From positions 5,580,001 through 5,644,000 of the forward strand of contig NC_087074.1 of NCBI RefSeq assembly GCF_026151205.1: DNA of 64,000 nt. The letters are read 5' to 3'. The position numbers and the translations under genes were made by a program. This document shows positions 5,959 to 63,075 of this stretch, one piece after another; positions within the stretch are counted from its first letter, which is position 1, and every line of letters begins with the position of its first letter. The DNA is from Bolinopsis microptera (lineage: Eukaryota > Ctenophora > Tentaculata > Lobata > Bolinopsidae). The notes beneath the pieces are model-generated. The model was not told the DNA's origin and did no database searches. It saw nothing but the letters and a program-made list of their open reading frames with translations.

Positions 5959-5965
5959 CAATCAT

Positions 5966-26823: not shown

Positions 26824-29800
26824 GTACTTTTATTGAAACCCTTACTTGGTTGGCATTGTATTTTACTGATGAGTGATGCATTAAGTCACTCTCTTATGCA
26901 GCACGATTTTATCGTACTCGGTAAAGAACTCAAATTATTTGTGATTCTAACCGACGATCTGCTAACAGTTGGAGTACGAAAGAGATGCTCGAGGAGAGAA
27001 ACAAATTCTAGGTCGCGGCACATACGGTGTGGTCTACTCTGCTATTGATAAGCTGACGAAGAGGAAAATTGCTGTCAAAGAAATTACCATTCAAGACGGA
27101 GATGAGTAAGTAGCCACTCATTCTTTACTTAGGGAACAGTTTTTTTTGAGGAATTGATCAGATTAACTATGAGTTTCCTTCTTTAAAAAAACAAAACTCA
27201 TAATATTGATACTTGATAATGTCTCGCGTCAAAGTTTCAATAAATTTGACTTACCTACAACGTTTCCTCAGCTCACAGATCCAGTATTTAGTAGAAGAGA
27301 TAGCACTCCACCAGCGGCTAAAAAACAAGAACATTGTCAGTTATTTGGGTTGTGAAAGAGAGGGTGTAACTGTCAGGATCTTCATGGAGCAAGTTCCCGG
27401 AGGTAAGTCTCAACGGATAACTTTATTTTCCAGGGATTAGTGATAGGATTTTTATTGATTGATGTAATTTATCAAGGGGTTCCAGATGAATTCGGGATTC
27501 CGAATAATGCACGATAAACTTCCACCCTCTAACTTATATACTACAGGTTCACTTCCACCCTCTAACTCATATATTACAGGTTCACTCAGCAAGCTGATCA
27601 AGAACATCTGGGGTCCACTGAAGGGCCAAGAACCGGCCATGAGCCATTACACTCGCCAGATAATCGAAGGCCTTATCTACCTTCACAAACAAAACATTGT
27701 CCACAGGTAAAACACGTGGTAAAACACGTGGTAAAACACGTGCCATATAGCAGAGTTTTAGGTTCGTACCTGGTCTGTAGTTCTAGGAATCCTTACATAT
27801 TCCTAATATTATGATTTGTTTATTGGTGAACCGGGGGAGGTTATAAATGTTTATATTATCACCTACTTTACATGATATTTAGCTGACTCGCTAAGTAACA
27901 TCAAACAGGGATATCAAGCCTGACAACATCCTCATTGACATGTACCGAGGAACACTTAAAATCTCGGATTTCGGAACGTCAAAACGAATCCAGGGATTGT
28001 GTCAAAAGATGGTTAATCTTAAAGGTACGTTTCAGTTTCTAATATGAATTAATATGTACATAATACATACCCATTACCCCCCTCTCTCCGTCCCCATCCG
28101 CAAATGGAGTCGATTTACGCAGACAAACAGTTTGTTGCCGTCTAGAAGTCCACTGCTAAATCTTTAACTCGTTCCTTTTCTGTCAACTGGCAATTTAGAG
28201 AGTTTAGGGTTTCAAAACAATTATGTAACACTGTTCAAAGCACTGCTCAGAGGAGAGGATTTTACAACTTCTTGAAACACTCTCTCTCTCCCTCGCTCTT
28301 TTGGAAGTGTTCCAAATGTTCATACCTAAAGTATGAGATCAGAAGAAAATTCTGTAACTTTGTTGTAAAACTGTAACTGTTACAGGAACGCCGCAGTTCA
28401 TGGCTCCCGAGGTGATCAGAGCCGGAGCCAGGGGTTACGGTCCTCCCGCTGACATCTGGTCTCTAGGTTGTACGTTGCTCGAGATGGCAACCGGCCAGAC
28501 GCCCTTTCATGAGGTACTTAGACATAAAAAACTAATTCTAAACATAGTGGTAGAGTGGTAACTCTAAAGATAGTGGTAGAGTGGTAACTCGAAACATAGT
28601 GGTAGAGTGGTAACTCTAAACATAGTGGTAGAGTGGTAACTCTAAACATAGTGGTAGAGTAGTAACTCTAAACATAGTGGTAGAGTAGTAACTCTAAACA
28701 TAGTGGTAGAGTGGTAACTCTAAACATAGTGGTATCAGTAGTAACTCTAAACATAGTGGTAGAGTGGTAACTCTAAACATAGTGGTAGAGTGGTAACTCT
28801 AAACATAGTGGTAGAGTAGTAACTCTAAACATAGTGGTAGAGTAGTAACTCTAAACATAGTGGTAGAGTGGTAACTCTAAACATAGTGGTATCAGTAGTA
28901 ACTCTAAACATAGTGGTAGAGTGGTAACTCTAAACATGGTGGTAGAGTGGTAACTCTAAACATAGTGGTAGAGTGGTAACTCTAAATATAGTGGTAGAGT
29001 GGTAACTCTAAACATGGTGGTAGAGTGGTAACTCTAAACATGGTGGTAGAGTGGTAACTCTAAACATGGTGGTAGAGTGGTAACTCTAAACATGGTGGTA
29101 GAGTGGTAACTCTAAACATGGTGGTAGAGTGGTAACTCTAAACATAGTGGTAGAGTGGTAACTCTAAACATAGTGGTAGAGTGGTAACTCTAAACATAGT
29201 GGTAGAGTGGTAACTCTAAACATGGTGGTAGAGATAGTGGTAGAGTGGTAACTCTAAATATAGTGGTAGAGTGGTAACTCTAAACATAGTGGTAGAGTGG
29301 TAACTCTAAACATAGTGGTAGAGTGGTAACTCTAAACATAGTGGTAGAGTGGTAACTCTAAACATAGTGGTAGAGTGGTAACTCTAAACATAGTGGTAGA
29401 GTGGTAACTCTAAACATAGTGGTAGAGTGGTAACTCTAAATATAGTGGTAGAGTGGTAACTCTAAACAATTCTAGCATTCGGTTTGATTTTAAACTCCAA
29501 GTGACCAATATTAAAGTAAGGTTTATATTATGGGGAACTGAAAGGTTGATAAATAGCAATTGCAGATAAGGGGAAATAAAACTTATACAATTGATTTAAT
29601 TAATTAGTTAATTAAATTGATTATCTACCTTCTTAACTGGCTGATCGTGGAAATAACAAATGGAATGTTGCTTTACCGGTCCACTATTGTTTAGGCTAAC
29701 GACTAAATCTTGTTAACGAACCATTTGACGGGCTTGTCGTGTGACTCTATCTAACCGTCCCCAATTTGCAGCTGAGATCTGAGTACCAGGTGTACTATAA

Positions 29801-32800
29801 GATTGGTAAATGTATTAGTCCTGCTCTACCGGACGATGTTTCCGAGGAACTCATCGACTTTCTCAAGAGGTTTGTTGTTTCTCTGTGTAATACATGACCC
29901 GCTTGGATTGTATGACGACTTTGTTCGCTTTGTCCTCCAGTTCCTTTATTTGTAATGGGAAGTGATGGAGTTCAGATGATGCTGCAATATATCGCTAACT
30001 ATCCCCTTTTAAGGGGGCCGGGGGGGGGGAGTCTTCATCAAAATTATCTCGAAATCGAAACTAGTCGATTTCGAGAGAATTTTGATGAAGACCCCCCCCC
30101 CCCCCGGCCCCCTTAAAGCATTAAGATGTGAGACCATTTTCAATCCATCAAATTCTGTACATTAGAGAAGCTATTTCACGTATCAGGGCCATTACGTTAG
30201 ATTCTATTTACAGTTGCTTCATTCCTGACGAGGAGAAGAGACCCACGGCTCAGCAGCTTTTGGAGAGCGCCTTCATTGAAAAACACAGGTACCTGCTTTA
30301 ATTTCCCGTTTTACTTTCCAACTCATTTTAATAGGTATAATTTATAAATGACTGTCCAATAAAATTGCCAAGAATTTACCCCAAGACAGTCAATTTTGGG
30401 GATAAACGCCAAGCGGTTTCTCACGCATTATGATGGACTATACAAAAGCACCAAGAGTTCATAAAATTTTGGATAGCATTTCTTGGGAGTAATAGCTAGA
30501 GGACAATACTTGTTCGCACGTTCATTTATCTAAAACTGTTCGTCGTTCGCTCATTATTCCTTTTGCTGTGCCTATATTCTTGCGAATATAAGTATTTAAC
30601 CGATATAACGAGATAAAGTATTGTCTACTTTTATCGTTCTCCGCTATAGAAACTATCGTTTAGTAACTTTATTATCTACAACTAAAGCTCGCATGACCAT
30701 TATCAATCTGTACAATGTTCGACCGTTTGCCAAAAAGATTAAGGTAATATTTTGTAGTTTTTAATCAAAATAGATCAAGTAACTAGTCCATTCGCTGAGT
30801 CTTCACGACTCAACAGCTTGGTCACTTGTTTGTCTCTTTCGAACAAGTTACTTGCGCTTTGAGCATAATTTCTGAGTACATCATCTTACTAACTGTAAGA
30901 TAATTGTTGATAGTTTCTTGACATTATCATAAACAGTTTAGTAATTAACCGAGTCCTGACCGTTAGCTTTTGTGGCCTGTAACTTGAAAAATAACAAGAT
31001 ATCGCCTATAGTTATTATATATTATTGTTATGAAGTTTGAAAATTTATTAAAAATGTGCGCTATTATTTCAGATACGGCAAAGCACCATTGACACCTAAT
31101 TCACCCAATCGTTCCAGGAAACACTACTTACGTAGTGCATCAGGTACGTGTTGCTATGGTTACCACTTAGTGTGAAAAGAGTGAGTATCGTGCAGCCGGA
31201 TCACTCGTGTGTAAACTCACTTCATCTCACATACACACGCGCACAAGCACACGCTCATAAGCACGTGCATCTCACATACACACGCGCAGCAGCACGTGCT
31301 AGTATACTTTTGCAAGTGCTCGGCTCAGCAACTTTTATAGTCTGGTAGCACTTTTCTCTCCAGTTCTCATCCTTCACTCAAACATTAAGCACTGTGTTTT
31401 CGCCAGTCGTTAAGCGAGCAATGTTCTGTGGGGCACGTTCACTCGGTTGAAAAACCTGCATGAACAGTTTCTGTGCTCTTGTATTGCAGTCGAGTGCTTC
31501 AACTCTAAAGCTGCGCTCGCTCAAGTCGAGTGCAAGGCTAGCCTCGACCACTAGTACCGCTGCCATGCTCCTCACTTCACTTCTTGTTTCATGCAAAAAA
31601 TTTAAACCATCTTGTTGTATTTTTAAACGTAACCCTGTAGGGCCCCTGTCGACGGTGGCATCCAATCCTGGCCAAGCTATAGGTGAACAAACACTCCGAT
31701 TATTGCATCCCACTATCTGCCTTATGTGCTGTATTGTCTACTAGGTGGGGGGAGCCGACAATAGACATTACTTTTAGAACAATCCACTTTTAATCTGATC
31801 AATTAATGTCTAATGAGCTACTAGAATGCTCATTATTTACTTCAAAGTATCGAAATGTGTCGTCTCCCCCCAGATTTTGCAAATTCCTCTCTCCTGTTAG
31901 AGAATGTGTATCTTACTACTTTTAAGGAGGGCTAATGATTTTACCATTAGTGCATCACGTGCATTACGTGCATTGCATGTTACTGTCGTTTCACTTGATA
32001 GTGCTCTGCATGTTCCGCATGAACGATTAGCTGTTCACTACAAGATTCAACAAGGTGGGTGAAGAAGAACACGCTGACAGTCACAGTGTCACACGCTGAC
32101 AGTCAGTGTCACACGCTGACAGTCACAGTGTCACACGCTGACAGTCACAGTGTCACACGCTGACAGTCACAGTGTCACACGCTGACAGTCACAGTGTCAC
32201 ACGCTGACAGTCACAGTGTCACACGCTGACAGTCACAGTGTCACACGCTGACAGTCACAGTGTCACACGCTGACAGTCACAGTGTCACACGCTGACAGTC
32301 ACAGTGTCACACGCTAGTCACAGTGTCACACGCTGACAGTCACAGTGTCACACGCTGACAGTCACAGTGTCACACGCTGACAGTCACAGTGTCACACGCT
32401 GACAGTCACAGTGTCACACGCTGACAGTCACAGTGTCACACGCTGACAGTCACAGTGTCACACGCTGACAGTCACAGTGTCACACGCTGACAGTCACAGT
32501 GTCACACGCTAAAGTTTTAAAACAATGCGAACGTTTGTTGGAGGTTCATACTTTACAACATACTCACAGTATGTAGTAAACATTGTTCATTACAATTTAC
32601 AGTTCACTACTCCAACTAACAGTTCATTACTCCGTCCTAATTCTGTGCGAGGTTTAACTCGGTTAGAGATGAGTATGCGTGCAGATTTAGCGCGTCATAT
32701 TTACCTTGTCACATTAATATCACATACCATTAAGAAACACCAGGTATAAAAGCATGTAAGAGAAATATTGGACGACACAGTACTAACATATTATAATATA

Positions 32801-33906
32801 TAATTGTCAATAAGCTACACCAAGTTCACACAACCTATAACAAGTTCACTCTCACAAGTATTCACGTTTCAATATATTTGTCGTGATTCCTTAGAGCGTG
32901 CGTACTGCGTGTTGTTGTGACAGGTCTTTGTTGTTGTGTTGCATTATTAGACGCTGTATTATACTTGTATAACTCCCCTTTTTACCTGGCTGTATTAGTA
33001 ATATAACGCTCTGATGGTCGGACGGTATTAAATCAGATCCGGGCCCTAGTACACAGCTGGGTTGCATGATCTCTCGGTAAGCCAGGGTGATCAGAGTTTT
33101 CTGTTCACAATGTTGTAAATGATTACTGGTTACTTGGTATAATGTTTGTGAGATGACTCGTGAGTGTTTGATCAGTGAATTCTTGTACTGATTTATTCGT
33201 GGGTTCATTTTATCAATTAGGGACTGTGTTTTCATGTTTTTTATATTGGAAAGATTGATACTTTACATTCTATGGTATTTCTCGGCACGAATTTTTAATC
33301 TCATGAAAGTTCCGTTTAAAAATGTATTTCCAAGTGATCTCAGATCTTGGAATGCTTTTGACTTCGAATTTAAACAGAACGCAGACTATCTAAGTATCAA
33401 TCTTGTTGGGTCGCTAAAACCGCATGTGTGAAGTTAAGAGCATGATCCTACGTTAACCTCTCTAACTTATCCTAGGTTAAAACCCGTCAATCAGACTAAA
33501 TGTAGCTTATCTTATCCTGACTTTTATCAATATTTCAGTGCCACATCAATCCTATGGTACCCATTCAAGCACAAGGTATGTATCGTTATAGTTGGTGCTT
33601 CTTTTGTGTAAAAACTTTCTCATGACGTTTAGTTGGGTTTACGCTATAGTTTTATCAACTTGACGCTATGATAACAAATCTTTTGCCTCATTAATAATAT
33701 TTAAGTTCTAGCATTTTACTATTTTCTGTTTTTGTTTCAGTCCTGATTACATCAACAAGAGCATGTCGATGGAGACAAAGAAGCAGCCAAGAGGATCCGC
33801 TTCAGACATGTCCCCCAAGTACGTGCTACTGTTTGTCATTAAAGCTACCAAATATTTACATATTCGTGTATATGTAGATCGGAATGTTGAAAAGCAGCAT
33901 CTATAA
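16198..33906 (+). CDS. ASK-family MAP kinase kinase kinase (14 exons, 5' end uncertain)
   Basis: Apoptosis signal-regulating kinases are cytosolic Ser/Thr kinases that phosphorylate MKK4/7 and MKK3/6 and so activate JNK and p38 under stress. Exons read by eye: 16198-16357, 21322-21478, 26293-26436, 26587-26823, 26969-27105, 27272-27402, 27580-27706, 27909-28024, 28386-28513, 29772-29869, 30214-30288, 31073-31143, 33539-33575, 33741-33818 or read through to a stop at 33,904-33,906. All phases agree. The order is ASK central regulatory region, then catalytic domain, then a short tail. Family hallmarks are ELLGKKG, the VLILE block, [20 protein letters not shown] and GTPQFMAPE. The N-terminal thioredoxin-binding part and the C-terminal coiled-coil/SAM-like part of vertebrate ASKs are not found here. 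Its introns hold several satellites and two G/C-capped hairpin elements. It converges on the TRIM gene. The family call is secure; the ends are not. Confidence 0.85.
16561..16640. repeat. short palindromic duplication
   Basis: ATTCTCGAGAGAGATAAT occurs twice, with TCTCTAGAATATTCTC between and after. It is a small inverted/direct repeat in the first long kinase intron. Confidence 0.5.
17408..17445. repeat. (CT)n microsatellite
   Basis: About 19 CT dinucleotides in the kinase intron. A short (AC)n run lies at 17,756-17,774. Confidence 0.9.
18835..19078. repeat. octamer array flanked by a 60-bp direct repeat
   Basis: About 15 copies of ACCTGGTT (18,888-19,017) lie between two near-identical flanks of about 60 bp (18,835-18,890 and 19,020-19,076). 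Both flanks contain GCTAGTAGTGGTCTAGACTC and end in AAAACCGGATA. The octamer expanded at the junction of a duplication. Confidence 0.85.
19079..21321. other. kinase intron, nothing else seen
   Basis: Remaining intron sequence before the exon at 21,322. Short chance frames on both strands, with no motif or repeat of note. Confidence 0.4.
21479..26292. other. 4.8-kb kinase intron
   Basis: Contains two copies of a diverged 35-bp segment with TTAAACTTTATTGAAAC (about 22,610 and 22,755) separated by three CACGTATATCTC units. A 139-codon open frame at 23,317-23,736 has no motif and is probably chance. No nested gene is recognised. Confidence 0.4.
26969..30288 (+). CDS. kinase gene, catalytic-domain exons
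   Basis: Seven exons encode a complete protein kinase domain. They carry the Gly loop [11 protein letters not shown], the VAIK-type lysine in IAVKE (AAA at 27,077), the alpha-C glutamate in EEIALH, the hinge FMEQVPGG, the catalytic loop HRDIKPDN (split across 27,706/27,909), DFG (Asp codon 27,967) and MAPE, ending in [16 protein letters not shown]. All catalytic residues are intact, so an active enzyme is predicted. In the activation segment the residue just before GTPQF is Lys (28,021-28,023), where ASK1 has the activating threonine. Introns here contain a 26-bp satellite (28,537-29,467), a foldback element (30,013-30,112) and duplicated splice sites. Confidence 0.88.
27518..27583 (+). repeat. 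duplicated splice acceptor (33-bp unit x2) in the kinase gene
   Basis: A 33-bp unit starting ACTTCCACCCTCTAACT is present twice in tandem, and each copy ends in TACAG|GTTC, so there are two consecutive acceptors (AG at 27,545-27,546 and 27,578-27,579). The downstream one is assigned because it gives the canonical ASK reading. Use of the upstream one would add 33 nt with no stop, an 11-residue in-frame insertion just after the hinge glycines. Confidence 0.8.
27707..27742 (+). repeat. 12-bp repeat starting exactly at a splice donor
   Basis: GTAAAACACGTG is repeated three times from the first base of the intron, so the GT donor is followed by two further in-register GTAAAA donor-like copies. 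Confidence 0.85.
28537..29467. repeat. 26-bp intronic satellite, about 36 copies
   Basis: Tandem units with GTGGTAGAGTGGTAACTCTA, beginning about 23 bp after the donor at 28,514. Variants include ATGGTGG, GTGGTATCAGTAG and one 12-bp slippage at about 29,230. A block of consecutive ATGGTGG variants (about 29,010-29,120) shows local homogenisation. Confidence 0.95.
30013..30112. mobile_element. 100-bp G/C-capped foldback element with TTAA target duplication
   Basis: A near-perfect palindrome. The left arm is GGGGGCC, ten G, then AGTCTTCATCAAAATT and TCTCGAAATCGA. The right arm is the reverse complement, ending in fourteen C, GG and CCCCC. The loop is only a few bases (AACTAG region). TTAA occurs on both sides (30,009-30,012 and 30,113-30,116), consistent with a target-site duplication. 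There is no coding capacity. It sits in the intron between two kinase exons. Confidence 0.75.
30289..31072. other. kinase intron, nothing seen
   Basis: AT-rich intron between the last catalytic exon and the first tail exon, without repeats or open frames of note. Confidence 0.4.
31073..33906 (+). CDS. kinase gene, C-terminal tail exons
   Basis: Exons 31073-31143 (with RKHYLRSAS, comparable to the YLRSISLP block just after the ASK1 kinase domain), 33539-33575 ([11 protein letters not shown]) and 33741 onward ([18 protein letters not shown]). The last donor-like site AA|GTACGT at 33,819 may be unused. Reading through adds 29 codons to a TAA at 33,904, with AATAAA at about 34,129. I found no downstream exons for the long ASK C-terminus. 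A candidate 18-codon terminal exon inside the 34.44-kb repeat is phase-compatible but weak. Confidence 0.5.
31746..31872. mobile_element. 127-bp short element with G-run inverted ends (tentative)
   Basis: The left end TGGGGGGAGCCGACA and the right end, read on the other strand, TGGGGGGAGACGACA match at 14 of 15 positions. The interior has a second inverted pair TAATGAGC...GCTCATTA. No convincing target duplication. It resembles a small member of the G-capped group. Confidence 0.45.
32066..32513. repeat. 22-bp intronic satellite, about 20 copies
   Basis: Tandem CACACGCTGACAGTCACAGT-GT units in the kinase intron. A single unit carries a 4-bp deletion (CGCTAGTCAC, about 32,313) and one early unit is shorter. 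The copies are otherwise almost identical. Confidence 0.95.
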
Positions 33907-34440
33907 ACCTGTTAGTGTCTCTAAAAGTGTGTCTTATTTCAACTGTTTAGTGTTTATGTGTGTGCGTGTCTTAGTGAGTTCTGTATCCGATGCGGTTGTG
34001 AGTGGTTGGACTAACCACTGTGGTGAGAGGAAGTAGGAACCTCACGCGATATGAGATATTATTCTTACCCTTTATTCACGGCATCCATCGCGATGTGAGG
34101 TTACTTGATACGATGTAAAGTATGCTCAATAAAAGTTGGATCTCGCTGTTTTATTCTCCAAGTCTCCGACCTCTTTTGTTGGCCGAGGGAGTATATTATT
34201 GTGCCGTAAAAAAATAAAATATTTGTTTTATTATTATATCATTTGTGGCTCGAGCGACTCTGCTGGATTTCTTTCACTAACTGTTTTTTAAATATTGTGC
34301 GCTAGATTTTGAAAGTGAACGTTGTGTGGTGCATCTTTATTTTCAAGAAGGTATAAATACAACCACTTTTTACTTTGAATCATTTCTCGTACGTGTTTCT
34401 CAAGTTCAACATTAAATCTCTCCATCTAGTCTGCTAAATT
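33907..34440. other. probable 3' region of the kinase gene
   Basis: Holds AATAAA at about 34,129 and little else. No exon-like frame for the missing ASK C-terminus was found. Confidence 0.35.
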
Positions 34441-35855: not shown

Positions 35856-35890
<35 letters not shown>

Positions 35891-36256
35891 AAGTGGATAT
35901 TTGTAGATATTTGGATAATGTCATCCACTTTTTTCGTGAATTATCCATTACAATAATCTACAAATATCTACATTTATCTACAAAAAATGTATATCTCAAA
36001 TATGTGCCCAGAAATTCTACTGAATTTTTGGAGATAAATGTATAAATTTGTAGAATTTGTAGAATTTTCGTGAATTATCCATTGACAATAATCTACAAAT
36101 ATCTACATTTATCTACAAAAAATGTAATCTCAAATATGTGCCCAGAAATTCTACTGAATTTTTGGAGATAAATGTATAAATTTGTAGAATGTCATCCACT
36201 TTTTTCGTGGATTATCCACTCTACATTAATCTACAAATATCTACAAATATCCACTT

Positions 36257-36288
<32 letters not shown>

Positions 36289-36293: not shown

Positions 36294-36662
36294 ATTTGGC
36301 TCAAAATAGTTCTGCTATTTTCCAATTTGAAAAATCTCCGGAGATTACAGTAGCTACAACTAAAGCACTCACAAGCTATTATGGTCCGTTATGAACTGGC
36401 AACTACATTAACTTTAATGAATATAAATATTCGCATTATGAATATAAACATTGCTATCGCGATCCGTCCTCACTTTAAAAGGAATAATCGATGTTGGGGA
36501 GACATTCTTCACCAAAGTCGCAATAGTTGCAAAGTTTTCAAGACCATGCAATTGCATTTTGCACCTCCTAGTTCACTTTTACCCTTCGTGAATTGGTATC
36601 AAATGTTGTGATCTCTCCTTACAATCATAATTGCGATAGTTACTTCAAAGAGATTGGCTGGT
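36294..36662. other. no gene seen; possible 3' end of the TRIM gene
   Basis: If TRIM exon 17 is spliced at 36,823, a short closing exon for the last NHL blade would be expected here. I could not identify one. A plus-strand open frame (36,381-36,611) lacks motifs. Confidence 0.35.
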
Positions 36663-36837
36663 TGTAGCCATAGTTACCTGAATACGATGATTGTTGCCAT
36701 AGTTACCTGAATACGATGATTGTTGCCATAGTTACCTGAATACGATGATTGTTGCCATAGTTACCTGAATACGATGATTGTTGCCATAGTTACCTGAATA
36801 CGATGATTGTTGCCATAGTTACCTGAATACGATGATT
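36663..36837 (-). repeat. 29-bp repeat x6 duplicating the donor of TRIM exon 17
   Basis: Each unit, on the minus strand, is the last 15 exonic bases (AATCATCGTATTCAG, encoding NHRIQ) plus 14 intronic bases GTAACTATGGCAAC. The first copy is the real exon end; five further copies follow inside the intron, so six CAG|GTAACT donors occur at 29-bp spacing. Reading on without splicing meets a stop within the second copy. Confidence 0.9.
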
Positions 36838-54800: not shown

Positions 54801-54966
54801 CGATTAATTTGTCTATAATACCTGATCAGATACAAGTAGATTGTCCTGCTGTGTTATAGCCACTCCGTAAGGGTAGTACAACTGTCCTTCCTCGTGTCCC
54901 TTGCCTCCCAACTCTACTATCGGCGTACGACTGAAGTTCAAGAGTTTAAATTCCCAATTAGTCAGA
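36823..54966 (-). CDS. TRIM gene, NHL-repeat exons
   Basis: Seven exons encode about six NHL units. The recognisable blades are GHEEGQLYYPYGVAI...GNSRIQVLD; NNQGQFNGPSGVTTHEG...VSDTGNDRVQVFD; ENKLHSPRGIAVSGDFIY; LQLPTGVTSDTDGQIFFTD; GEFLGPTDLTIDSLGNVI...RNHRIQ; and KKGLLHFPYGVCERNG...NNHRIQ. These fold as a beta-propeller that binds RNA or protein partners. Exon 12 ends CCT TCA G and exon 13 begins GT GTA, restoring PSGV across a 12.9-kb intron, which is strong evidence that both belong to one gene. The final closing strand is missing or lies in an unidentified last exon. Confidence 0.85.
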
Positions 54967-57900
54967 CTGAGCAGGTTGAGCTGTAGTAATACACAGTTCT
55001 GAGGCGTTAAAACATTTTCATTACTATCTTCAGTAACATCCTGAATCATAAACTCGGTTAATATCAGTTCCTACAAACTACGACTAAGTTACTACGAAGT
55101 CTACGACTGAAGTTATATCATTCAGGGAAGGCTTACTCGGCATTCCATTTTTCAAACCAAAAACTTTAATTTTGAAATTTTAAAAATGCTTTCTCTCATC
55201 CTTGATCCCCTACATCATGGTAATACTTCACTAAATTTTCAATAAACTAAATCTATTGTACCTGATATCCCGGTATCTGGAGATAGTATCCTTTTCAATA
55301 AACTAAATCTATAGTACCTGATATCTATAGTACCTGATATCCCGGTATCTGGAGATAGTATCTAACTAAATCTATAGTACCTGATATCTATAGTACCTGA
55401 TATCCCGGTATCTGGAGATAGTATCTAACTAAATCTATAGTACCTGATATCTATAGTACCTGATATCCCGGTATCTGGAGATAGTATCTAACTAAATCTA
55501 TAGTACCTGATATCCCGGTATCTGGAGATAGTATCTAACTAAATCTATAGTACCTGATATCCCGGTATCTGGAGATAGTATCAAACTAAATCTATAGTAC
55601 CTGATATCCCGGTATCTGGAGATAGTATCTAACTAAATCTATAGTACCTGATATCCCGGTATCTGGAGATAGTATCTAACTAAATCTATAGTACCTGATA
55701 TCCCGGTATCTGGAGATAGTATCCTTGTCCGGTGCTGTGAACTTCACCTCGAAACACGGGTTAGACTCTCTGGCACGTGTTGCACTGCGTTCTGCCCTCC
55801 GGGACGTCAGCGATGTTGTTGTGTTTGTTCTTGGAATATCTGAAAAACACGCATGAGTTACAACTCTGATTATTAGATAAAACAGAATTAATAAGTAATT
55901 TGTCTATGGCCTACCTAATTTATACACTATCTAAAGATCAGTTCTAAACTTCTGGTCATACCTTCAGTAACAGTGTCTTTAGCTTCTTCTTCAACCTCTT
56001 CTTCCGTCGGTCTCTCCTTATACTGTTCCTCATTGATAGCAGCACCTTTCCCAACATTCACCACATCTTTCTTCTCCTTGCCAGCATCTTTGTTATTTTG
56101 CGCAACATTTTCCTTTTGTTTCTCTTTTTTAGTCGGTTGTCCTTCTCTGCTGACATTTCTACTGGCACTTGGCACTTCTGCATCTGAGATATAGTTACGT
56201 TATGAGCAACAGGTTATCTTAGAGTTGGAATCACCTGTCAAGAAATCAACTAAAGCTACTAAATAAAAAGTAAACGCTACAAAACCTTACCCTGTACGAC
56301 AACTTGTTCTGGGGCAACGGCTTTATTCTCAGCCACCGTCTTTTCCTCGCGATATTCCTCGTTATTTTCTGATCTGATCACTTCCTTATAATTTTCTATT
56401 TCTTTCTTTGCTATTTCTTCCCTTGCTTTTTCTTCCCTTGCTTTTTCTTCCCTCTCTATTTCTTCCCTGGCTATTTCTTCCCTTGCCACTTCTTCCCTTG
56501 CCAATTCGTCTCTAGCCAATTCCTCTCTCGCCATTTCTTCCTCATCATATAAGATTTCTTCCTCGTCTTCACCATCTTCAGATCCCTCATCAAAATGAAA
56601 TTCTATTTCGCCAACGCTTGTGATAGATTCCAAAGCGTGTGCCAACATCTTTGGTTTGAACTCGTAGTCGACTTTGGCATCATCGTCCTTAAAAATAATC
56701 AGAATTTGATAATTAAACAAATGGCAGGTAATAATTTTCTGAAAAACGTATGACCAGGACCAGTTATTAAAGCCTAATTTCAATCTTTTTGGGAGGTAAA
56801 CCCATCAGCTTGGCAATACCAACTGTGTTAAGTAACAGCGTAACGATGAGTAAGTTATAAACTCATTAATAATACCTTAGTTACTATAACGTAAGTAAGT
56901 TACAAACTCATTAATAATACCTTAGTTACTATAACGTAAGTAAGTTACAAATTCATTAATAATACCTTAGTTACTATAACGTAAGTAAGTTACAAACTCA
57001 TAATTAATAATACCTTAGTTACTATAACGTAAGTAAGTTAAAAATTCATTAATAATACCTTAGTTACTATAACATAAGTAAGTTACAAATTCATTAATAA
57101 TACATTAGTTACTATAACGTAAGTAAGTTACAAATTCATTAATAATACCTTAGTTACTATAACGTAAGACTTGTTGCAGAGTCTGTAAAGAGCATCGCAC
57201 AGTTCCTCCTCTTTGTAGATTAAGTTTGTATCCGTATCTCCTTCCATTACCTGGTACATGTAGTAATGTAACATATTGTAATATTATGTGTATTGTGTAT
57301 GTATGTATACACATAATATGTTATATTATAAAATAATGTGTATTGCGTATGTATGTATACACATAATATGTTATATTATAAAATAATGTGTATTGCGTAT
57401 GTATGTATACACATAATATGTTATATTATAAAATTATGTGTATTGTGTATGTATGTATACACATAATATGTTATATTATAAAATAATGTGTATTGTGTAT
57501 GTATGTATACACATAATATGTTATATTATAAAATAATGTGTATTGCGTATGTATGTATACACATAATATGTTATATTATAAAATAATGTGTATTGCGTAT
57601 GTATGTATACACATAATATGTTATATTATAAAATTATGTGTATTGCGTATGTATGTATACACATAATATGTTATATTATAAAATTATGTGTATTGCGTAT
57701 GTATGTATACACATAATATGTTATATTATAAAATAATGTGTATTGCGTATGTATGTATACACATAATATGTTATATTATAAAATAATGTGTATTGTGTAT
57801 GTATGTATACACATAATATGTTATATTATAAAATAATGTGTATTGTGTATGTATGTATACACATAATATGTTATATTATAAAATAATGTGTATTGCGTAT

Positions 57901-60900
57901 GTATGTATACACATAATATGTTATATTATAAAATAATGTGTATTGCGTATGTATGTATACACATAATATGTTATATTATAAAATTATGTGTATTGTGTAT
58001 GTATGTATACACATAATATGTTATATTATAAAATAATGTGTATTGCGTATGTATGTATACACATAATATGTTATATTATAAAATAATGTGTATTGCGTAT
58101 GTATGTATACACATAATATGTTATATTATAAAATTATGTGTATTGCGTATGTATGTATACACATAATATGTTATATTATAAAATAATGTGTATTGTGTAT
58201 GTATGTATACACATAATATGTTATATTATAAAATAATGTGTATTGTGTATGTATGTATACACATAATATGTTATATTATAAAATTATGTGTATTGTGTAT
58301 GTATGTATACACATAATATGTTATATTATAAAATAATGTGTATTGCGTATGTATGTATACACATAATATGTTATATTATAAAATTATGTGTATTGTGTAT
58401 GTATGTATACACATAATATGTTATATTATAAAATAATGTGTATTGCGTATGTATGTATACACATAATATGTTATATTATAAAATAATGTGTATTGCGTAT
58501 GTATGTATACACATAATATGTTATATTATAAAATTATGTGTATTGTGTATGTATGTATACACATAATATGTTATATTATAAAATAATGTGTATTGCGTAT
58601 GTATGTATACACATAATATGTTATATTATAAAATAATGTGTATTGCGTATGTATGTATACACATAATATGTTATATTATAAAATTATGTGTATTGCGTAT
58701 GTATGTATACACATAATATGTTATATTATAAAATTATGTGTATTGTGTATGTATGTATACACATAATATGTTATATTATAAAATAATGTGTATTGTGTAT
58801 GTATGTATACACATAATATGTTATATTATAAAATAATGTGTATTGTGTATGTATGTATACACATAATATGTTATATTATAAAATAATGTGTATTGCGTAT
58901 GTATGTATACACATAATATGTTATATTATAAAATTATGTGTATTGTGTATGTATGTATACACATAATATGTTATATTATAAAATAATGTGTATTGCGTAT
59001 GTATGTATACACATAATATGTTATATTATAAAATTATGTGTATTGTGTATGTATGTATACACATAATATGTTATATTATAAAATAATGTGTATTGTGTAT
59101 GTATGTATACACATAATATGTTATATTATAAAATAATGTGTATTGTGTATGTATGTATACACATAATATGTTATATTATAAAATAATGTGTATTGCGTAT
59201 GTATGTATACACATAATATGTTATATTGTAATATTATGTGTATTGTGTATGTATGTATACACATAATATGTTATATTATAATATAATGTGTATTGTGTAT
59301 GTATGTATACACATAATATGTTATATTATAATATTATGTGTATTGTGTATGTATGTATACACATAATATGTTATATTATAATATTATGTGTATTGTGTAT
59401 GTATGTATACACATAATATGTTATATTGTAATATTATGTGTATTGTGTATGTATGTATACACATAATATGTTATATTGTAATATTATGTGTATTGTGTAT
59501 GTATGTATACACATAATATGTTATCTAAAATCAGGTACACTTTGGACTTAAATTACTAATAATCTTTGAAGACAAAATATAAGTTTAAATTCTGTATTTA
59601 ATACAGAATGTTAAGGATTGTTGCCAAGGATGTCTCTGGCATGGCTGTCACGGCTGATGGCCATTACAGATCGCTAATATACGTGAAATATCCTGCCATG
59701 ACGCGGAACATCCAAGATTTAATATAAGATAAAATTATTAAAGTGCATTATCATTCGTTACTATGGTCATGAACTTCACATGTAAGATCACATGATCTCT
59801 GTTGACGTTACATGTCATTAAGAGTTAAGTGATCACAGACCGCCAAATCTGAGGCCAGTTGCTTCTCTCTACCCGTTCTTCCTTTCAAAAGTAAATACTC
59901 TGTCGTTATGCAGTTTTGTAACTACAAAGTTTACCCTACCTTGCTTGACAGAGTTATGCAGAAGTCAGCACGCCCCATGTGTCCTATATTATGCACAGTA
60001 CTGGTAGCTCGCAACCCTTCAATCACTAATCGTATTAGTTAACCACCCCACTGTACAATACTGTCTTAAAGTTAATCTACCTCAGTGACTGTTTGTGAGA
60101 GCTCTAGACTCTTCTTAATGGTGGCACACAGCTCGTTCCGCTTCATCTTTAGGACACTGACCCGATCATATCTCAGATCGTTTAGTTCCTCCAATAGATC
60201 CTTCTTGCGGTGTTTCAGTGCTCGTATCATATCGTCAAACGACCGGTCCAGCTAAACAGGGGAAATGTGATTTATATATATATCATGTGTATCTCACTAT
60301 TTATAAAGCGAGACGATATATATTGTATTATATATGGCAGAGTCAGGCAGAATGAGGTATTATCCAGTGTTGAGCGTCTGATAGACGGGCTGCTGGTAAC
60401 ATTAACGTGTGGGTTCCCCGAATCTATGAAGGTTTTCCATGAATATTGTTTGTCATGACTTTCAGTTCAGCGACCTTAGCAATGCCCACGTTATGATTTG
60501 CAACATTGTGAGGTCGCGTCTGGCCACTAGACGGTCGGATATAGATTAAAATAATGATAGAATTACCATTTCAATTTAATATTTGAATATTTACCAAATT
60601 AAATAGACAAGAACTAAAATTGAACCCTTTGAGACTGAGTGACCAAATGGAATTCACATTATGCCTGCCTCGCAGTCGCATAATTATCAAATAATTACAA
60701 ACTATAGGGAGATTGCGCAAGATAAATTCCATAATGTACAGGTTCCTTTGTAAGTACAGGTTCCTTTGTAAGGTTCCTTTGTAAGTACAGGTTCCTTTGT
60801 AAGTACAGGTTCCTTTGTAAGTGCGTGTTTATACTATAATAAAAGAACGGGGGAACATTTTAGTTTAAGACATGCCACAAATTTTCCTATTAAGAGCTTA

Positions 60901-63075
60901 AATTTCATTTTTTTGAATTTCTTTCGCCAGTATTCCATTTCTATACACTCATCAAAACGCTTAAAAAACAATTAAAATGTCCATATTGGTCGAGCGCGCT
61001 TCACGAGTCACATGTTGAGGCTTTTAACAGGTAATTTTATCAGTTATTTCAAAATTACGTAACTTACCTAATTCTCCATTGGATTATAAATGGCTTGCAT
61101 TTGCTATTTACTTCGCTAAACTTTATTTGCGCTAAACCATCCGCTACTACGGAAATAAAGTTAAAAATCGTTTTTTGTTTGAGATTTACTAGATATCATG
61201 GAAAAACTATAAAACTATAATATTAAGTAGGTAATACTTAGTCTTACCCCCTCTATAGCAGCATCGTGGATAACTTCAGTCTCTTCGATTGACTGTCGTA
61301 TCTCTTCAATCGCTTCCTAAACATATTATGATTATTGTGTACGCCGAATGATATTTATCATTTTGAAGTGCCAGTCACCTACTCATAATATTAACCTCCT
61401 GTTTATGCACATATATGGTCTTTAAATACCAAATTTATACCATAATGTTCAGTGCTGCTGTCAACTTGACGGAGTAAGTAATCCCACCTGTAGTGGGGTG
61501 TGGCGGTCCCTGGCGGCGTTTGCTAAGCTCGTCATGTTCTGGACCGCCGACATGGCGGCGTCTTTAACGGTGCCGACGGCGTGGTCCACGTGGTCACACG
61601 AACATTCCATACAGTATCTGTGTAGTTCGGAGTTTACTGTAACAATTAAGAGTCTACTGTATCAATTTAAGAGTCTATACTTGTGACAGTTAGGGAGTCA
61701 ACTGTAGTAGTTCGTATAAATTGAGTAGGTTGCTGTATAGTAGTAGTTTTAAATCATGGTATTTCTGGAGTACTGCTATAATTTATAAACTATAATCCGG
61801 ATTATAAACTGACACCTGATTACACTTGTGACAAAACATGTCACGGATTATAAACTGACACCTGATTACAGTTGTGACAATACATGTCACGGATCTTGTT
61901 GTGACCGTAGCACATCTCGTAGTTCTTAGCTTTCTCCCGGTCCGTATTATTGTCCGCATTTTCTTCCGCACCGTTGCCCTCAGCTTGAGCATCTGGACAT
62001 ATCTCCAAGACGGCCGATAGGAATCTGTCCGCCAGAAAGTCCATGGGGAAATTCGAAACATTTCCACCCGGAACGTTAACCTCCTGTGAATTACAATAAA
62101 TTACATTTCATATAATATAACGTTAACTTAACCTCCTGTGAATTACAATAAATTACATTTCATATAATATGTTGCTTCATACGTTAACCTCCTGTGAATT
62201 ACAATAAATTACATTTCATATAATATGTTACTTCATAAATTTAAGGCAATTCCCAGATGGATAACTCGCTACAATGTTTATATTTTAAAAAGCGTTTAAA
62301 ATTGAAACAGTTTAGCTGGTAGGTGTTGCCGACCTGTACCACGGTACATAAAGACCGGGTTAAAAGACCCACGTTACTTATTACTTAAAGAGTCAGACCC
62401 TCCCTCTAACGCTACCATCCCTATAACTCCGCAATGTTTAAATCTCTCCCGTTTGGTGCAGATGTCTCTCTTTGATGAATTTACTCGGCGAAGAATGTTC
62501 TAATTTTAGCAACTTAACCTGGTACTTACCTCTTTGCAAGTGGGACAGGTTAGGGTGTGGACGAACAGCTCGTCTCCGCACATTCCTTTGAGGCATTCTT
62601 GACAGAACGAGTGGAGACAGGGCAGCGCACGTGGCTGAAATGGTTTCTCTTTCAACAATTTTTTTCTCTTTCAACAATTTGTTTCTCTTTCAACATTGTC
62701 GCACGGCAACACCACGCTGTCACGGGTGGGACTATCAACGTTAATATGACACAGTTCTTATGATATAAGAGCCGGGTCATTTTAAGATGTTATATTATAT
62801 ATATGCAATTTTAAAATACCACAAATACCCAAAAGTTTACTGGCTATTGTCGATTTTTCACTTCCCTCTAAAGAGGTACCGACAAATACTGTATAAATGT
62901 CATAATAGCCGTGGGTTTACTACGTGTGATCTGTCAAATTCGATGTAATAAATATTCAGTTTATCAATCAATTGATGGGCTGGTTAATAATAACCTCGCG
63001 AAGTTGAGATTTGCAGATGTTACAAGTGAACTGGTTTAGTAGCTGAGTTTCCAGACCCATGCTGGAGCCGGCCAT
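36823..63075 (-). CDS. TRIM-NHL protein (RING, B-box 2, coiled coil, NHL propeller), 17 exons
   Basis: Proteins of this type are usually E3 ubiquitin ligases or RNA-binding post-transcriptional regulators. Exons on the minus strand, 5' to 3': 62995-63075, 62530-62634, 61860-62083, 61488-61617, 61248-61316, 60081-60251, 57149-57250, 56291-56687, 55962-56183, 55695-55839, 54822-54966, 52441-52540, 39406-39501, 39161-39235, 38535-38701, 37948-38088, 36823-36960. All phases agree and give 836 codons with no internal stop. The start is the first ATG (MAGSSMGLETQLLNQ) just before the RING. The C-terminus is probably short of one closing strand. Intron 12 is 12.9 kb and contains two protease genes and a retroelement. 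The acceptor chosen for the exon at 54,966 is the least certain junction. Ortholog not resolved (TRIM2/3/71-like architecture, but no clear filamin domain). Confidence 0.85.
37110..37315. repeat. 49-bp intronic repeat, about 4 copies
   Basis: Units with TCTAAATTCGGGATCTAGAT followed by AATACTATAATAGTGTTCAA, in the TRIM intron between exons 16 and 17. The first copy lacks CTATAATA. Confidence 0.85.
37587..37666. repeat. CCACGTGATCAGA repeat x6
   Basis: A tandem 13-14-bp unit carrying an E-box-like CACGTG next to TGATCA, with one CGCGTG variant, in the TRIM intron. Confidence 0.85.
39507..40026. other. intron and 3' flank of the first protease gene
   Basis: AT-rich. It contains the intron start upstream of TRIM exon 13 and the 3' flank of the protease at 40,027. 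No clear structured element. Confidence 0.35.
40027..41811 (-). CDS. secreted papain-like cysteine protease with large C-terminal extension (copy 1)
   Basis: 594 residues in a single exon. The start is the ATG in front of the signal peptide MKLFLLLALLPLLAQAQ; the frame is open 40 codons further upstream but without a better start. The papain (C1) core carries Q63, CGSC with catalytic Cys70 (codon 41,604-41,602), SIQNFMNC, His211 in GSHANSIIGY, and QESYGKGWG at 226-234. Compared with papain there is one extra residue between Gln and Cys, Gly replaces the invariant Trp after Cys, and Glu227 stands where the catalytic Asn is expected. About 320 residues follow, containing W-rich blocks (KWSLVSSELGKPLL, ERWTLERDQI), perhaps a beta-trefoil-like module (inference). 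It lies on the same strand inside TRIM intron 12 and is a tandem paralog of the gene at 44,007. Extracellular or granule location inferred. Confidence 0.9.
   Translation of the reverse strand: MKLFLLLALLPLLAQAQEEEMSDTEEDREKADVVDDWWWNDQASIPDYFDNSNRGVVSSAIYQGATCGSCGQVSGTQALEARIALVSENWVPYSIQNFMNCDGRVCVGTQPYRMAALARNSNWIVPRDELPYTKNACRAWGEGKSGCDCGHKMGNKYSNVLDDQFVFIGPTVPAHTEKELKHALQTGPAVTTYTRSGAKKLGAKCKNGGSHANSIIGYNKESFIIQESYGKGWGNFKNGTWETEADDICGKAILSKAYFTVIFYDYDRANAYYSEVDGEESGLLYLVIDASLSFTEKDLSNIGLAKNRCAFMGEHCKGVYKATDGEIKLVSSVSKNGKKNKKGSKNIVTYYRKKQMVIYLKNEESNSYLTIVGKKHPKLGMNSKKKAAPFFTSYGRIISYRRPEYHVVDNRLVKIEGDIKDSRIIDQSNTWALNDCNLKNAGSGESLDLLEDGVGGNPTNLDSQSQRFSIGISGKWSLVSSELGKPLLKNKKTNAFTFIEASKTNEAEFRWNAQQITSSLGKPFNANFEQDSGYFEFSQDPKNAVTPTGCKLVKQADHTTRLALVKKRKKYHFKMAHNVDEQFGERWTLERDQI
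41812..44006. other. spacer between the two protease genes
   Basis: AT-rich. An 80-codon plus-strand frame at 42,569-42,811 (start ATGATGGCGATG; includes LVDLLVWTMIVQSSFDDIF and ICERFADFIGLELV) and one at 42,119-42,340 look somewhat protein-like but match nothing I know. No repeats of note. Confidence 0.35.
42569..42811 (+). CDS. hypothetical 80-residue ORF (weak)
   Basis: Starts at the first of three clustered ATG codons and ends in LELVT. Moderately hydrophobic N-terminal half, then FEPNNLLKELFKQTNVWLF. No signal peptide, domain or neighbouring splice signal is recognised. Antisense to the protease cluster and the TRIM intron. It could be a small gene, an exon or chance; the last is quite possible. 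Confidence 0.2.
   Translation: MMAMPQLPASIRVLCARRLVQLVDLLVWTMIVQSSFDDIFEPNNLLKELFKQTNVWLFSSGNTRQICERFADFIGLELVT
44007..45923 (-). CDS. secreted papain-like cysteine protease with large C-terminal extension (copy 2)
   Basis: 638 residues in one exon, beginning with the signal peptide MTLLSILALVPILSFAQ. It is a paralog of the gene at 40,027 along its whole length. The core has Q90, CGAC with catalytic Cys97, SIQNFMNC, His237 in CSHANSVIGY and QESYGKGWG with Glu253 at the papain Asn position, so both copies share the Asn-to-Glu change, the Trp-to-Gly change and the extra residue before Cys. Differences from copy 1 include a longer acidic pro-segment, a lysine run GKKKKKKK at about residue 370, and an inserted loop EITITKKKSRT in the C-terminal part. 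The 2.2-kb spacing and same orientation indicate tandem duplication. Both copies keep open frames and conserved cores, so both are probably functional. Confidence 0.9.
   Translation of the reverse strand: MTLLSILALVPILSFAQELDDLKMAKKGNSELGALIMWIRKEITETEEDKEEAEFVDDWWLTHQGLTNEGPIPTYLDNHKRGVVSQAIHQGVTCGACGQVSGVQALEARIALVSENWVSYSIQNFMNCDGRICIGTQPYRMATQVRNSNWIVPKDELPWTKSECKKWGEGKTKCLCGHKMGNYTNVLDDQFVFIGPTVPAQTKEKLKLALQTGPATTCYTRSGAKKLGVQCKNGCSHANSVIGYTQDTLLIQESYGKGWGKFGNGTWETNIEGTCGEAILNKAYFTVIFYDYDRANAYYHEDEMVESELSFLEYEPGLHFTEKDLNNIGTAKNRCAFLGVYCKGVYKTLEEGFKLISSISKKGKKKKKKKNIPNLVTYYRKKQMVIYLQNDATETYLQLKHTNKMKQSYPKLVMSSNVKKAAPFFTSYGRLISYQYPQYHLVDNRLVKIEGDIKDSRIIDQSNTWALDDCNLQNRATGKSLDLKEITITKKKSRTIEYGITGNPTNMNSDSQRFGVGISQKWSLVSSKLGRPLLHDKKTRLQTFSQPGGKLNEAKFRWNAQQIVSSLGKPFDRNFEKDPGYFEFSGDPDNAVVPTGCKLVKEADKANRLVLMRKNSVRMAHGVVDDASERWTLQRGQI
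46124..46200. repeat. 17-bp repeat x4 at the left end of the retroelement
   Basis: ACCCCCTTTACTATTAT is repeated about four times, the last variant continuing CCCCCTTTGGTACACG. Confidence 0.85.
46218..46276. other. paired GC-rich hairpins with GAA loops
   Basis: GTGCACGC-GAA-GCGTGCAC (46,218-46,236) is followed directly by a stem CCGGAGGCGGCGGCC (46,242-46,256), loop GAA, and its complement (46,260-46,274), then TTTTT. It is strikingly GC-rich for this AT-rich window. Both stems have the same three-base loop. Origin unknown. Confidence 0.8.
47504..49015 (+). pseudogene. Penelope-like reverse transcriptase with GIY-YIG endonuclease, 5'-truncated and frameshifted
   Basis: From 47,711 a 434-codon frame carries the RT palm (PTGGSLCVQLANI, then YIDD at 47,828-47,839), the thumb, the Cys motif C-x4-C-x2-C (PCRKKNCATC) and a GIY-YIG nuclease (IIYLIRCKLCEKPYVGKST, RFGEHR), ending at TGA 49,013-49,015. 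Upstream the same frame extends to 47,582 (INCDWLVDLVDIS), then homology continues in another frame (FPKHKEMFLKEKFEIVE, from about 47,530), so a frameshift lies near 47,580-47,590. RT fingers and any upstream domain are absent. The GIY-YIG plus Cys motif is diagnostic of the endonuclease-positive Penelope class. This copy cannot encode a full enzyme. Confidence 0.88.
49421..49490. repeat. 70-bp inverted repeat, left arm
   Basis: Contains GATTGACCGTTCTCAAATGC and TCGGTCGCTCGCTTTTCCCA. It is reverse-complementary to 49,699-49,768 with one mismatch. Part of the 3' end of the Penelope-like element. Confidence 0.9.
49699..49768. repeat. 70-bp inverted repeat, right arm
   Basis: Inverse partner of 49,421-49,490, separated by a 208-bp spacer and immediately adjacent to the right 29-bp direct repeat. 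Confidence 0.9.
49797..52440. other. TRIM intron 12, no further gene seen
   Basis: About 2.6 kb of AT-rich sequence between the retroelement and TRIM exon 12. No motif-bearing frames. Confidence 0.45.
52541..54821. other. TRIM intron 11, nothing seen
   Basis: Contains short runs such as AAGTCAACAT/TTTCAACGTATTT repeats near 54,240-54,300 and chance frames only. Confidence 0.4.
55252..55724 (-). repeat. 47-bp repeat duplicating the donor of TRIM exon 10 (9 copies)
   Basis: On the minus strand each unit contains the last 29 exonic bases (GATACTATCTCCAGATACCG ... ATATCAG) followed by intronic GTACTATAGATTTAGTTA. The rightmost copy is the real exon end (55,695-55,723); eight more follow in the intron. 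Some units carry an additional partial duplication of CAG|GTACTATAG. Confidence 0.9.
55695..61316 (-). CDS. TRIM gene, coiled-coil and charged linker exons
   Basis: Exon 5 (EAIEEIRQSIEETEVIHDAA) and exon 6 (IRALKHRKKDLLEELNDLR) form a B-box C-terminal coiled coil. Exon 7 (EEELCDALYRLCNKSYVIVT) and the start of exon 8 (KVDYEFKPKMLAHALESI) match the end of that region in TRIM proteins. Exon 8 then becomes an acidic stretch and an internal repeat of five-residue AREEx units (about 11 copies, varied as ARDEL, EREEK, AKKEI), followed by KE-rich exon 9 and basic exon 10. The AREE repeat is unusual for a TRIM linker and would extend a single charged helix. Confidence 0.8.
56855..57172 (-). repeat. 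45-bp repeat duplicating the donor of TRIM exon 7 (7 copies)
   Basis: On the minus strand each unit has the exon tail CTTACGTTATAGTAACTAAG followed by intronic GTATTATTAATGAATTTGTA. The authentic exon end is at 57,149; six further donor copies lie at 45-bp steps (one 47-bp step) in the intron. Confidence 0.9.
57276..59524. repeat. 60-bp hairpin satellite, about 37 copies
   Basis: Exact 60-bp periodicity, with each unit containing GTATGTATGTATACACATAA. Within a unit ATTATGTGTAT pairs with ATACACATAAT to form a hairpin with a loop of about 13 bp. Units vary mainly at two sites (GCGTAT/GTGTAT and AAATAATG/AAATTATG). The last several units have an ATATTATG junction instead. The array lies in TRIM intron 6, only about 25 bp from the acceptor of exon 7. 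Confidence 0.95.
59525..60080. other. TRIM intron 6 remainder, nothing seen
   Basis: Unique AT-rich sequence between the satellite and exon 6. Confidence 0.4.
60738..60825. repeat. 18-bp intronic repeat, about 5 copies
   Basis: GTACAGGTTCCTTTGTAA is repeated with one shortened unit. It contains ACAG|GT but is not at an identified exon edge. Confidence 0.85.
61488..63075 (-). CDS. TRIM gene, RING and B-box exons
   Basis: Exon 1 ends FTCNICKSQLRE and exon 2 continues PRALPCLHSFCQECLKG ... TCPTCKE. Together they give C-x2-C, C-x-H-x2-C-x2-C and C-x2-C, a C3HC4 RING whose intron falls between the first Cys pair and the rest. Exon 3 plus exon 4 give a type-2 B-box: CYGH, then YCHNC, CMEC and CDHVDH, spaced C-x2-H-x7-C-x2-C-x4-C-x2-C-x3-H-x2-H. 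That spacing requires the donor GT|GTCAGT at 61,860 and the acceptor CTACACAG at 61,618, which also restores phase. A RING predicts E3 ligase activity. The linker between RING and B-box is about 67 residues and only one B-box is visible. Confidence 0.85.
61797..61889 (-). repeat. 46-bp duplication of the donor of TRIM exon 3
   Basis: The last part of exon 3 (CCGTGACATGTATTGTCACA ... AATCAGGT) and the following intron GTCAGTTTATAAT are duplicated once in tandem with three differences. The two donors are 46 bp apart, so use of the second would shift the frame and destroy the B-box. Confidence 0.9.
62072..62227 (-). repeat. tandem triplication of the acceptor of TRIM exon 3
   Basis: Three copies (spacing 52 and 56 bp) of intronic AATTTATTGTAATTCACAG followed by exonic GAGGTTAACG. 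The acceptor next to the exon is at 62,084; two further TTCACAG|GAGGTTAA copies lie upstream in the intron. Confidence 0.9.
62644..62697 (-). repeat. 18-bp repeat x3 just upstream of the acceptor of TRIM exon 2
   Basis: TTTCTCTTTCAACAATTT (plus strand) occurs three times. On the minus strand it ends about 10 bp before the TTTCAG acceptor of exon 2. Confidence 0.8.

What the first reader, a model, noticed from the sequence alone, without database searches (positions are those of the whole stretch)
27518..62697. Tandem repeats repeatedly coincide with splice junctions in two genes
In the kinase and TRIM genes, at least seven tandem repeats either contain an exon edge plus its splice site or start exactly on it: 27,518 (acceptor x2), 27,707 (donor-initiated x3), 36,663 (donor x6), 55,252 (donor x9), 56,855 (donor x7), 61,797 (donor x2) and 62,072 (acceptor x3). 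Units differ in sequence and length (12, 29, 33, 45, 46, 47, about 54 bp), so they are not one mobile repeat. Most junctions read CAG|GT. This fits recurrent tandem duplication of proto-splice-site segments, a proposed route of intron birth or intron growth, or a strand-slippage process targeted to splice junctions. It is the strongest unexplained pattern here.
Basis: partly seen in the sequence, partly recalled or inferred. Interest (0 to 1): 0.85.

Follow-up and report, generated by a model that had tools for sequence, protein, structure and literature searches.

The report
Minisatellites that overlap splice sites
In this animal genome, probably a comb jelly's, short tandem repeats sometimes begin in the last bases of an exon and copy its splice site many times over; a wider sample suggests they land there mostly by chance and survive because only the first copy needs to work.

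Summary
The repeats are real. Six of the seven cited arrays overlap a junction whose exons join in frame in a conserved gene (ASK-like kinase, TRIM-NHL). The seventh (36,823) is a likely donor without a found downstream exon.

Outside the window, 225 introns in two samples of the same genome had arrays over 8 donors and 1 acceptor. Nulls that place array starts at random give a donor excess: declared pooled null P 0.013 (second sample alone P 0.31); collapsed-intron null, 3.8 expected, P 0.030. If introns were about 200 bp when seeded, 7.8 are expected per side: donors ordinary, acceptors depleted (P 0.004).

No array spans both ends of any of 251 introns, against intron birth. Only 1 of 144 downstream donor copies counted keeps an open frame.

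Best reading: ordinary minisatellites in a repeat-rich genome, silent at donors because the exon-proximal copy is used, selected against at acceptors. Introns with up to 52 donor copies are natural tests of splice-site choice. A mild donor hot spot is not excluded.

The parts
27518..27586 (+). 33-bp x2.1 array with acceptor of kinase exon GSLSKLIKN; conserved acceptor at 27,580, upstream copy at 27,547 (33 bp, in frame)
   Evidence: the open reading frame through the upstream copy is
27706..27742 (+). 12-bp x3.1 array starting on the last exon base at donor 27,706|27,707
36662..36841 (-). 29-bp x6.2 array; probable donor at 36,823 (CAG|GTAACTATGG), six identical site copies; downstream exon not found
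55252..55723 (-). 47-bp array with 12 copies of donor GATATCAG|GTACTATA; exon-proximal copy at 55,695
56841..57168 (-). 45-bp array with 7 copies of donor TAACTAAG|GTATTATT (one reads AATG); exon-proximal copy at 57,149
61798..61894 (-). 46-bp x2.1 array; donor at 61,862 after ...MYCHNCNQ and a second copy at 61,816
62073..62237 (-). 52-56-bp x3 array with three acceptor copies (62,191, 62,135, 62,083) before exon EVNVPGGN
26587..33818 (+). ASK-like (MAP3K5/15 type) kinase gene, 11 exons modelled, 10 introns; not modelled further up- or downstream
   Evidence: Pfam Pkinase and ASK_PH
36823..63074 (-). TRIM-NHL gene (RING and B-box by reading only; NHL match), 16 introns modelled
39502..52440 (-). 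12,939-bp intron of the TRIM-NHL gene that holds two long intronless ORFs (one matched Peptidase_C1) and a reverse-transcriptase-like ORF

Best explanation
The arrays are ordinary local minisatellites. Short tandem duplications arose more or less at random in and around introns of a repeat-rich genome, and some grew by slippage or unequal exchange. When a duplication straddles a donor, the exon-proximal copy still ends the exon correctly and all other copies lie in the intron, so the event is silent and the array is free to expand. When it straddles an acceptor, an upstream copy can steal splicing and insert sequence, so most such events are lost. Shown: the arrays, the junctions, the 8:1 donor-to-acceptor ratio outside the window, the lack of enrichment over shuffled positions, and the loss of frame at nearly all downstream donors counted. 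Inferred: use of the exon-proximal donor, selection against acceptor copies, random seeding, and the growth mechanism.
For: Samples: 115 introns (myosin, dynein C-terminal and kinesin exons) and 110 more with the repeat criterion written down beforehand (TCP-1, ABC, DHC_N2, AAA_6). Donors spanned 8 of 225, acceptors 1 of 225 (two-sided binomial on 8:1, P 0.039). Junction coverage 2.0% against 10.7% of positions. Donors plus acceptors 9 against about 7.7 expected by random placement in collapsed introns, P 0.36 (0.13 and 0.18 at two of three stricter repeat settings, 0.35 at the third). With introns capped at 200 bp (median intron without arrays 183 bp) expected 7.8 per side: donors 8 (P 0.52), acceptors 1 (P 0.0036); array edges 1-25 bp inside the intron 8 and 11 against 9.3. 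Of 144 downstream donor copies counted, 1 keeps an in-frame open reading. Four two-copy arrays overrun two whole units by only 0-5 bp, fitting generic short-homology duplication. Published minigenes with two identical donors 52 nt apart favour the upstream one under exon definition (PMC9225289, passages read); 10 of the 12 solved donor-array introns are longer than 250 bp.
Against: Random-start nulls show a donor excess. Pooled null, the one in use when one search was written: 8 against 3.05, P 0.013 (sample 1: 6 against 1.94, P 0.014; sample 2: 2 against 1.11, P 0.31). Collapsed-intron null, adopted afterwards: 8 against 3.83, P 0.030, and 0.006 at TRF score 70 or more (sample 1 P 0.017, sample 2 P 0.50). 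Array edges also cluster 1-25 bp inside the intron: 8 at donors and 11 at acceptors against 4.5 without a length cap. The 200-bp cap is an assumption that I chose after seeing the counts, and the introns that carry arrays are long even when collapsed (median 766 bp over array records). PMC9225289 also reports that under intron definition the downstream donor is preferred, which would make donor duplications in short introns harmful. The window alone has two acceptor arrays. No transcripts were available.
Confidence: 0.72

Rival explanations
1. Tandem duplication is mutationally targeted to exon-intron junctions, donors above all, for example through transcription-linked structures at the 5' splice site.
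For: Donor spans 8 against 3.05 (P 0.013) or 3.83 expected (P 0.030, up to 0.006 at a stricter repeat score); array starts 1-25 bp inside the donor 8 against 4.5, and array ends 1-25 bp inside the acceptor 11 against 4.5; window excess.
Against: The second sample alone shows 2 against 1.11 or 1.64 (P 0.31, 0.50). The excess vanishes if introns were about 200-300 bp when the repeats arose. Junctions lie in arrays less often than positions at large. Acceptors spanned are low, not high.
Confidence: 0.14
2. The arrays record intron birth: tandem duplication of an AGGT-bearing exon segment made new introns.
For: Units contain exon end plus CAG|GT. Fission-yeast introns made of tandem repeats have been described as gained this way (PMC3629103, passages read).
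Against: 0 of 251 introns has one array over both splice sites; the opposite end lies 96-1795 bp outside the array in the nine spanning cases of the samples. Two of the eight donor-array introns share position and phase with paralogous introns in other sampled genes (L033 with L021, L069 with array-free L065). The NHL position HRIQ| carries a solved intron at 37,948 with no array at its junctions, although two arrays lie inside it.
Confidence: 0.03
3. Donor copies are kept by positive selection, as a buffer that makes splicing robust or tunes it.
For: Donor-site copies are well kept: 12, 7, 6 and 2 copies within three mismatches over 16 bp in four window arrays.
Against: Where copies stay in register they differ at few bases over the whole unit too (0 to 6), as recent arrays would. 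143 of 144 downstream copies counted would break the frame or add a stop.
Confidence: 0.05
4. Assembly or gene-model error made the coincidences.
For: No RNA-seq; the junctions were inferred by homology and a splice-site score.
Against: Exons join in frame in conserved domains; 236 of the 240 neighbouring exon pairs tried were solved, 4 of them flagged ambiguous; the arrays differ in unit and gene.
Confidence: 0.05

Closest known systems
Intronic minisatellites (VNTRs; known kind, from general knowledge)
   Same: Local head-to-tail copies of short units in introns, growing the intron
   Different: Here the first copy includes up to 53 bp of exon and the splice site
[quoted passage not shown] fission yeast SPOG_01682/SOCG_00815, potato RdRp; PMC4974935 and PMC3629103, passages read)
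   Same: A tandem duplication carries a splice or proto-splice site
   Different: Here the array sits at one end of an existing intron and supplies both ends in 0 of 251 introns
Novel intron positions in Drosophila by intron sliding or tandem duplication (PMC2891723, abstract and section list read)
   Same: Duplication of coding sequence around a proto-splice site
   Different: No evidence here of a new intron position
Human introns from tandem arrays (Zhuo et al. 2007, PNAS; only the citation seen, in a reference list)
   Same: Introns linked with tandem arrays, by title
   Different: Not read; comparison rests on the title alone

Membership tests
Intronic minisatellite | Head-to-tail copies of a unit of about 10-100 bp | tested here: met
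   units 12-56 bp for the seven window arrays; for the samples
Intronic minisatellite | Copy number varies between individuals | not testable with these tools
   one assembly only
Intron birth by tandem duplication | One array or duplication supplies both the GT and the AG | tested here: not met
   0 of 251 introns
Intron birth by tandem duplication | Orthologues lack the intron | not testable with these tools
   no relatives of this genome are held
Process targeted to splice junctions | Junctions enriched in arrays over shuffled positions | tested here: not met
   9 of 450 (2.0%) against 10.7%
Process targeted to splice junctions | Array starts enriched at donors over random placement | tested here: inconclusive
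   8 against 3.05 (P 0.013) or 3.83 (P 0.030); second sample alone P 0.31 and 0.50; absent if introns were about 200 bp

The most novel reading that the evidence does not exclude
Donor duplication is a self-licensing route of intron growth. Donors are mild hot spots for tandem duplication; once copies push the intron past about 250 bp, exon definition makes the first copy the one used, so each further copy is free. This would explain the 8:1 donor bias, arrays filling up to 95% of an intron, and an intron with 52 near-identical donors.
Probability: 0.14. Interest if true: 0.65.

Novelty: new member of a known kind. Interest (0 to 1): 0.34.

Why it matters
It turns an apparent targeting of splice junctions into something close to the expectation for a minisatellite-rich genome, and it shows how much the answer depends on the intron length used in the null. 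It also supplies natural constructs: introns whose own donor is repeated 2 to 52 times, where among the copies counted all but one downstream copy would break the protein. These allow a direct test in living tissue of which of many near-identical 5' splice sites is chosen. If the donor excess held genome-wide, it would point to a route of intron growth.

Tried and rejected
Position-wise recurrence test: an 18-mer over the junction recurs nearby at 6 of 225 donors and 1 of 225 acceptors, against 10.9% of interior intron positions. Rejected as the main null because interior positions of long arrays count many times, but it too shows no enrichment. Pooled null: the null in use when the second sample was declared; 8 donor spans against 3.05, P 0.013. 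I later preferred the collapsed-intron null because arrays lengthen their own introns; that choice came after the counts. Left edges 1-25 bp inside donors under the pooled null: 4 against 1.82 and 4 against 1.55; right edges at acceptors: 4 against 2.06 and 7 against 1.66. Intron-age test by paralogues: too weak to be general, 82 of 236 introns share a position with any sampled paralogue. UCH exons were searched but not used: few neighbouring exon pairs. NHL paralogues (L091-L093) show NHR[IV]Q|GT sites, but GT there may be a valine codon, so they were not counted. ASK paralogues: no second close gene seen in the listed matches. Rfam and tRNA scans of the window listed nothing.

Limits of the samples. 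Loci were chosen where several exon hits lay close together, so long introns are under-represented: 205 of 228 hits and 169 of 210 hits lay in fetched loci. Exon pairs were tried only if their profile gap was -40 to 6. Sample 2 reuses some dynein genes of sample 1 (other exons), so it is not fully independent. Rows dropped: sample 1, 125 exon pairs, 122 solved, 115 used (4 in the near-duplicate loci L028 and L043, 2 ambiguous, 1 low score); sample 2, 115 pairs, 114 solved, 110 used (2 ambiguous, 2 low score). The low-score rule (above -3) was set after sample 1 was first counted; it removed one intron there and left the donor count unchanged (6). One search counted 6 of the 11 downstream donor copies at 55,695 that one search lists, and none at 27,706, where the frame meets TAA directly after the junction.

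Literature: one search returned 0 papers, seven and four (listings only); none looked like a description of arrays over splice sites. This covers only the held open-access library and those words.

Full report
What the window is. The window lies at C3:5580001-5644000 of an assembly of 264,652,675 bases in 232 contigs. The contigs met (twelve of C1 to C13) are 15-26 Mb long. A published table gives 265 Mb, 13 chromosomes and 346 scaffolds for the ctenophore Bolinopsis microptera, and 248 Mb, 13 chromosomes and 142 scaffolds for Mnemiopsis leidyi (PMC11797021, passages). I infer a lobate ctenophore, probably Bolinopsis; the contig count differs and no sequence comparison was made, so this is not proven. 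The plus strand carries an ASK-like kinase (Pkinase E 1.4e-67, ASK_PH E 6.4e-08). The minus strand carries a TRIM-NHL gene from 63,074 to about 36,823, with 16 modelled introns.

The observation. All seven arrays exist. Six overlap junctions of solved introns. The exon share of the array is 7 bp and 12 bp at the two acceptors (27,580 and 62,083) and 1, 33, 20 and 29 bp at the donors 27,706, 61,862, 57,149 and 55,695. The seventh, at 36,823, follows the same HRIQ motif as the solved donor at 37,948, but I identified no downstream exon and the frame stays open for ten codons. Site copies (16-mer, up to 3 mismatches) number 12 at 55,695, 7 at 57,149, 6 at 36,823, 2 at 61,862 and 1 at 27,706, and 2 and 3 at the acceptors.

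Test outside the window. I sampled conserved genes by Pfam exon hits in the same genome, fetched the DNA, and solved junctions by frame, profile position and splice-site score. Sample 1 (myosin, dynein C-terminal, kinesin) gave 115 usable introns. Before taking sample 2 I wrote down the repeat criterion. Sample 2 (TCP-1, ABC, two dynein motor domains) gave 110; some of its dynein genes are also in sample 1, with other exons. Arrays were called by TRF with score 50 or more and unit 6 bp or more. Donors spanned: 6 of 115 and 2 of 110. Acceptors spanned: 1 of 115 and 0 of 110.

Four nulls. That is depletion, as expected since exons resist repeats. (b) Pooled random starts, in use when sample 2 was declared: 3.05 donor spans expected, 8 seen, P 0.013; sample 2 alone 2 against 1.11, P 0.31; acceptors 1 against 3.83. 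(c) Random placement of one repeat unit in the intron with arrays collapsed, adopted afterwards: 3.83 expected per side; donors 8, P 0.030; acceptors 1, P(1 or fewer) 0.086; both together 9 against about 7.7, P 0.36. With score 70 or more the donor P is 0.006 and the joint P 0.13. Sample 2 alone gives donor P 0.50. (d) The same with intron length capped, because introns may have grown after a repeat was seeded: at 300 bp 6.2 expected per side, at 200 bp 7.8; donors are then ordinary (P 0.28, 0.52) and acceptors low (P 0.015, 0.0036). Array edges 1-25 bp inside the intron, 8 at donors and 11 at acceptors, exceed the uncapped value of 4.5 but fit the 200-bp value of 9.3. Introns without arrays have a median of 183 bp; over the array records the collapsed median is 766 bp, so array-bearing introns have also grown by other means or were long to begin with. 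The cap was chosen after seeing the data and is the weak point of this argument.

Not intron birth. No array covers both ends of any of 251 introns (225 sampled, 26 in the window). Among the eight donor-array introns of the samples, L069 shares position and phase with an intron of another dynein in which no array was called (L065), and L033 with a kinesin intron (L021) that itself has an array 11 bp inside. The other six have no such partner among the sampled genes.

How it likely works. In the 12 solved donor arrays plus 36,823, one search counted 144 downstream copies of the donor. One, 18 bp downstream in L019, would leave an open frame; the rest shift the frame or meet a stop. So the protein needs the exon-proximal donor. 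A published study reports that two identical donors 52 nt apart compete in favour of the upstream one when the exon is defined across itself, and cites older work in which the downstream one wins across the intron (PMC9225289, passages). Ten of the 12 solved donor-array introns exceed 250 bp, the range that paper gives for exon definition. A duplicated donor is therefore often silent, above all in long introns. A duplicated acceptor puts a new AG before the old one. The 8:1 bias (P 0.039) fits that, but selection itself is inferred. At 27,580 the upstream acceptor copy is 33 bp away, in frame and open, a case that could be tolerated.

What remains. The held literature showed intron gain from tandem duplications (PMC4974935 and PMC3629103, passages; PMC2891723, abstract with section list), and Tandem Repeats Finder marks 13% of the Hormiphora genome as repeats (PMC8527503, passage), so a repeat-rich background is not unusual for a ctenophore. 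Searches returned nothing that I recognised as describing arrays over splice sites as a class (listings only, apart from PMC4974935).

Noticed in passing
39,502-52,440 (minus): A 12.9-kb intron of the TRIM-NHL gene holds two intronless ORFs of about 650 codons on the same strand (one matched Peptidase_C1; the other not tested) and a plus-strand ORF at 47,582-49,015 that reads like a Penelope-type reverse transcriptase with GIY-YIG end (recalled, not searched). Hormiphora is reported to have 2357 nested intronic genes (PMC8527503, passages).
   Followed up: partly
35,856-36,287: A run of 33 G, an inner repeat-rich stretch and a run of 29 C, with matching flanks in inverted order: looks like a large palindromic element.
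   Followed up: no
2,756-6,100: A CCT-rich array of about 3 kb flanked by inverted TTGGAGACA / TGTCTCCAA repeats, like one element with a tandem core.
   Followed up: no
57,273-59,524: A 50-bp AT-rich array of 45 copies ends 23 bp upstream of the acceptor of the exon at 57,250; in the two samples 11 arrays also stop 1-25 bp before an acceptor, more than the 4.5 expected without a length cap.
   Followed up: partly
L032 5,685-7,430 (gene orientation): A kinesin intron of 1,818 bp is 95% array, with 51 downstream near-copies of its own donor.
   Followed up: partly
27,547: Possible alternative acceptor that would add 11 residues in frame ([11 protein letters not shown]) to the kinase domain.
   Followed up: no
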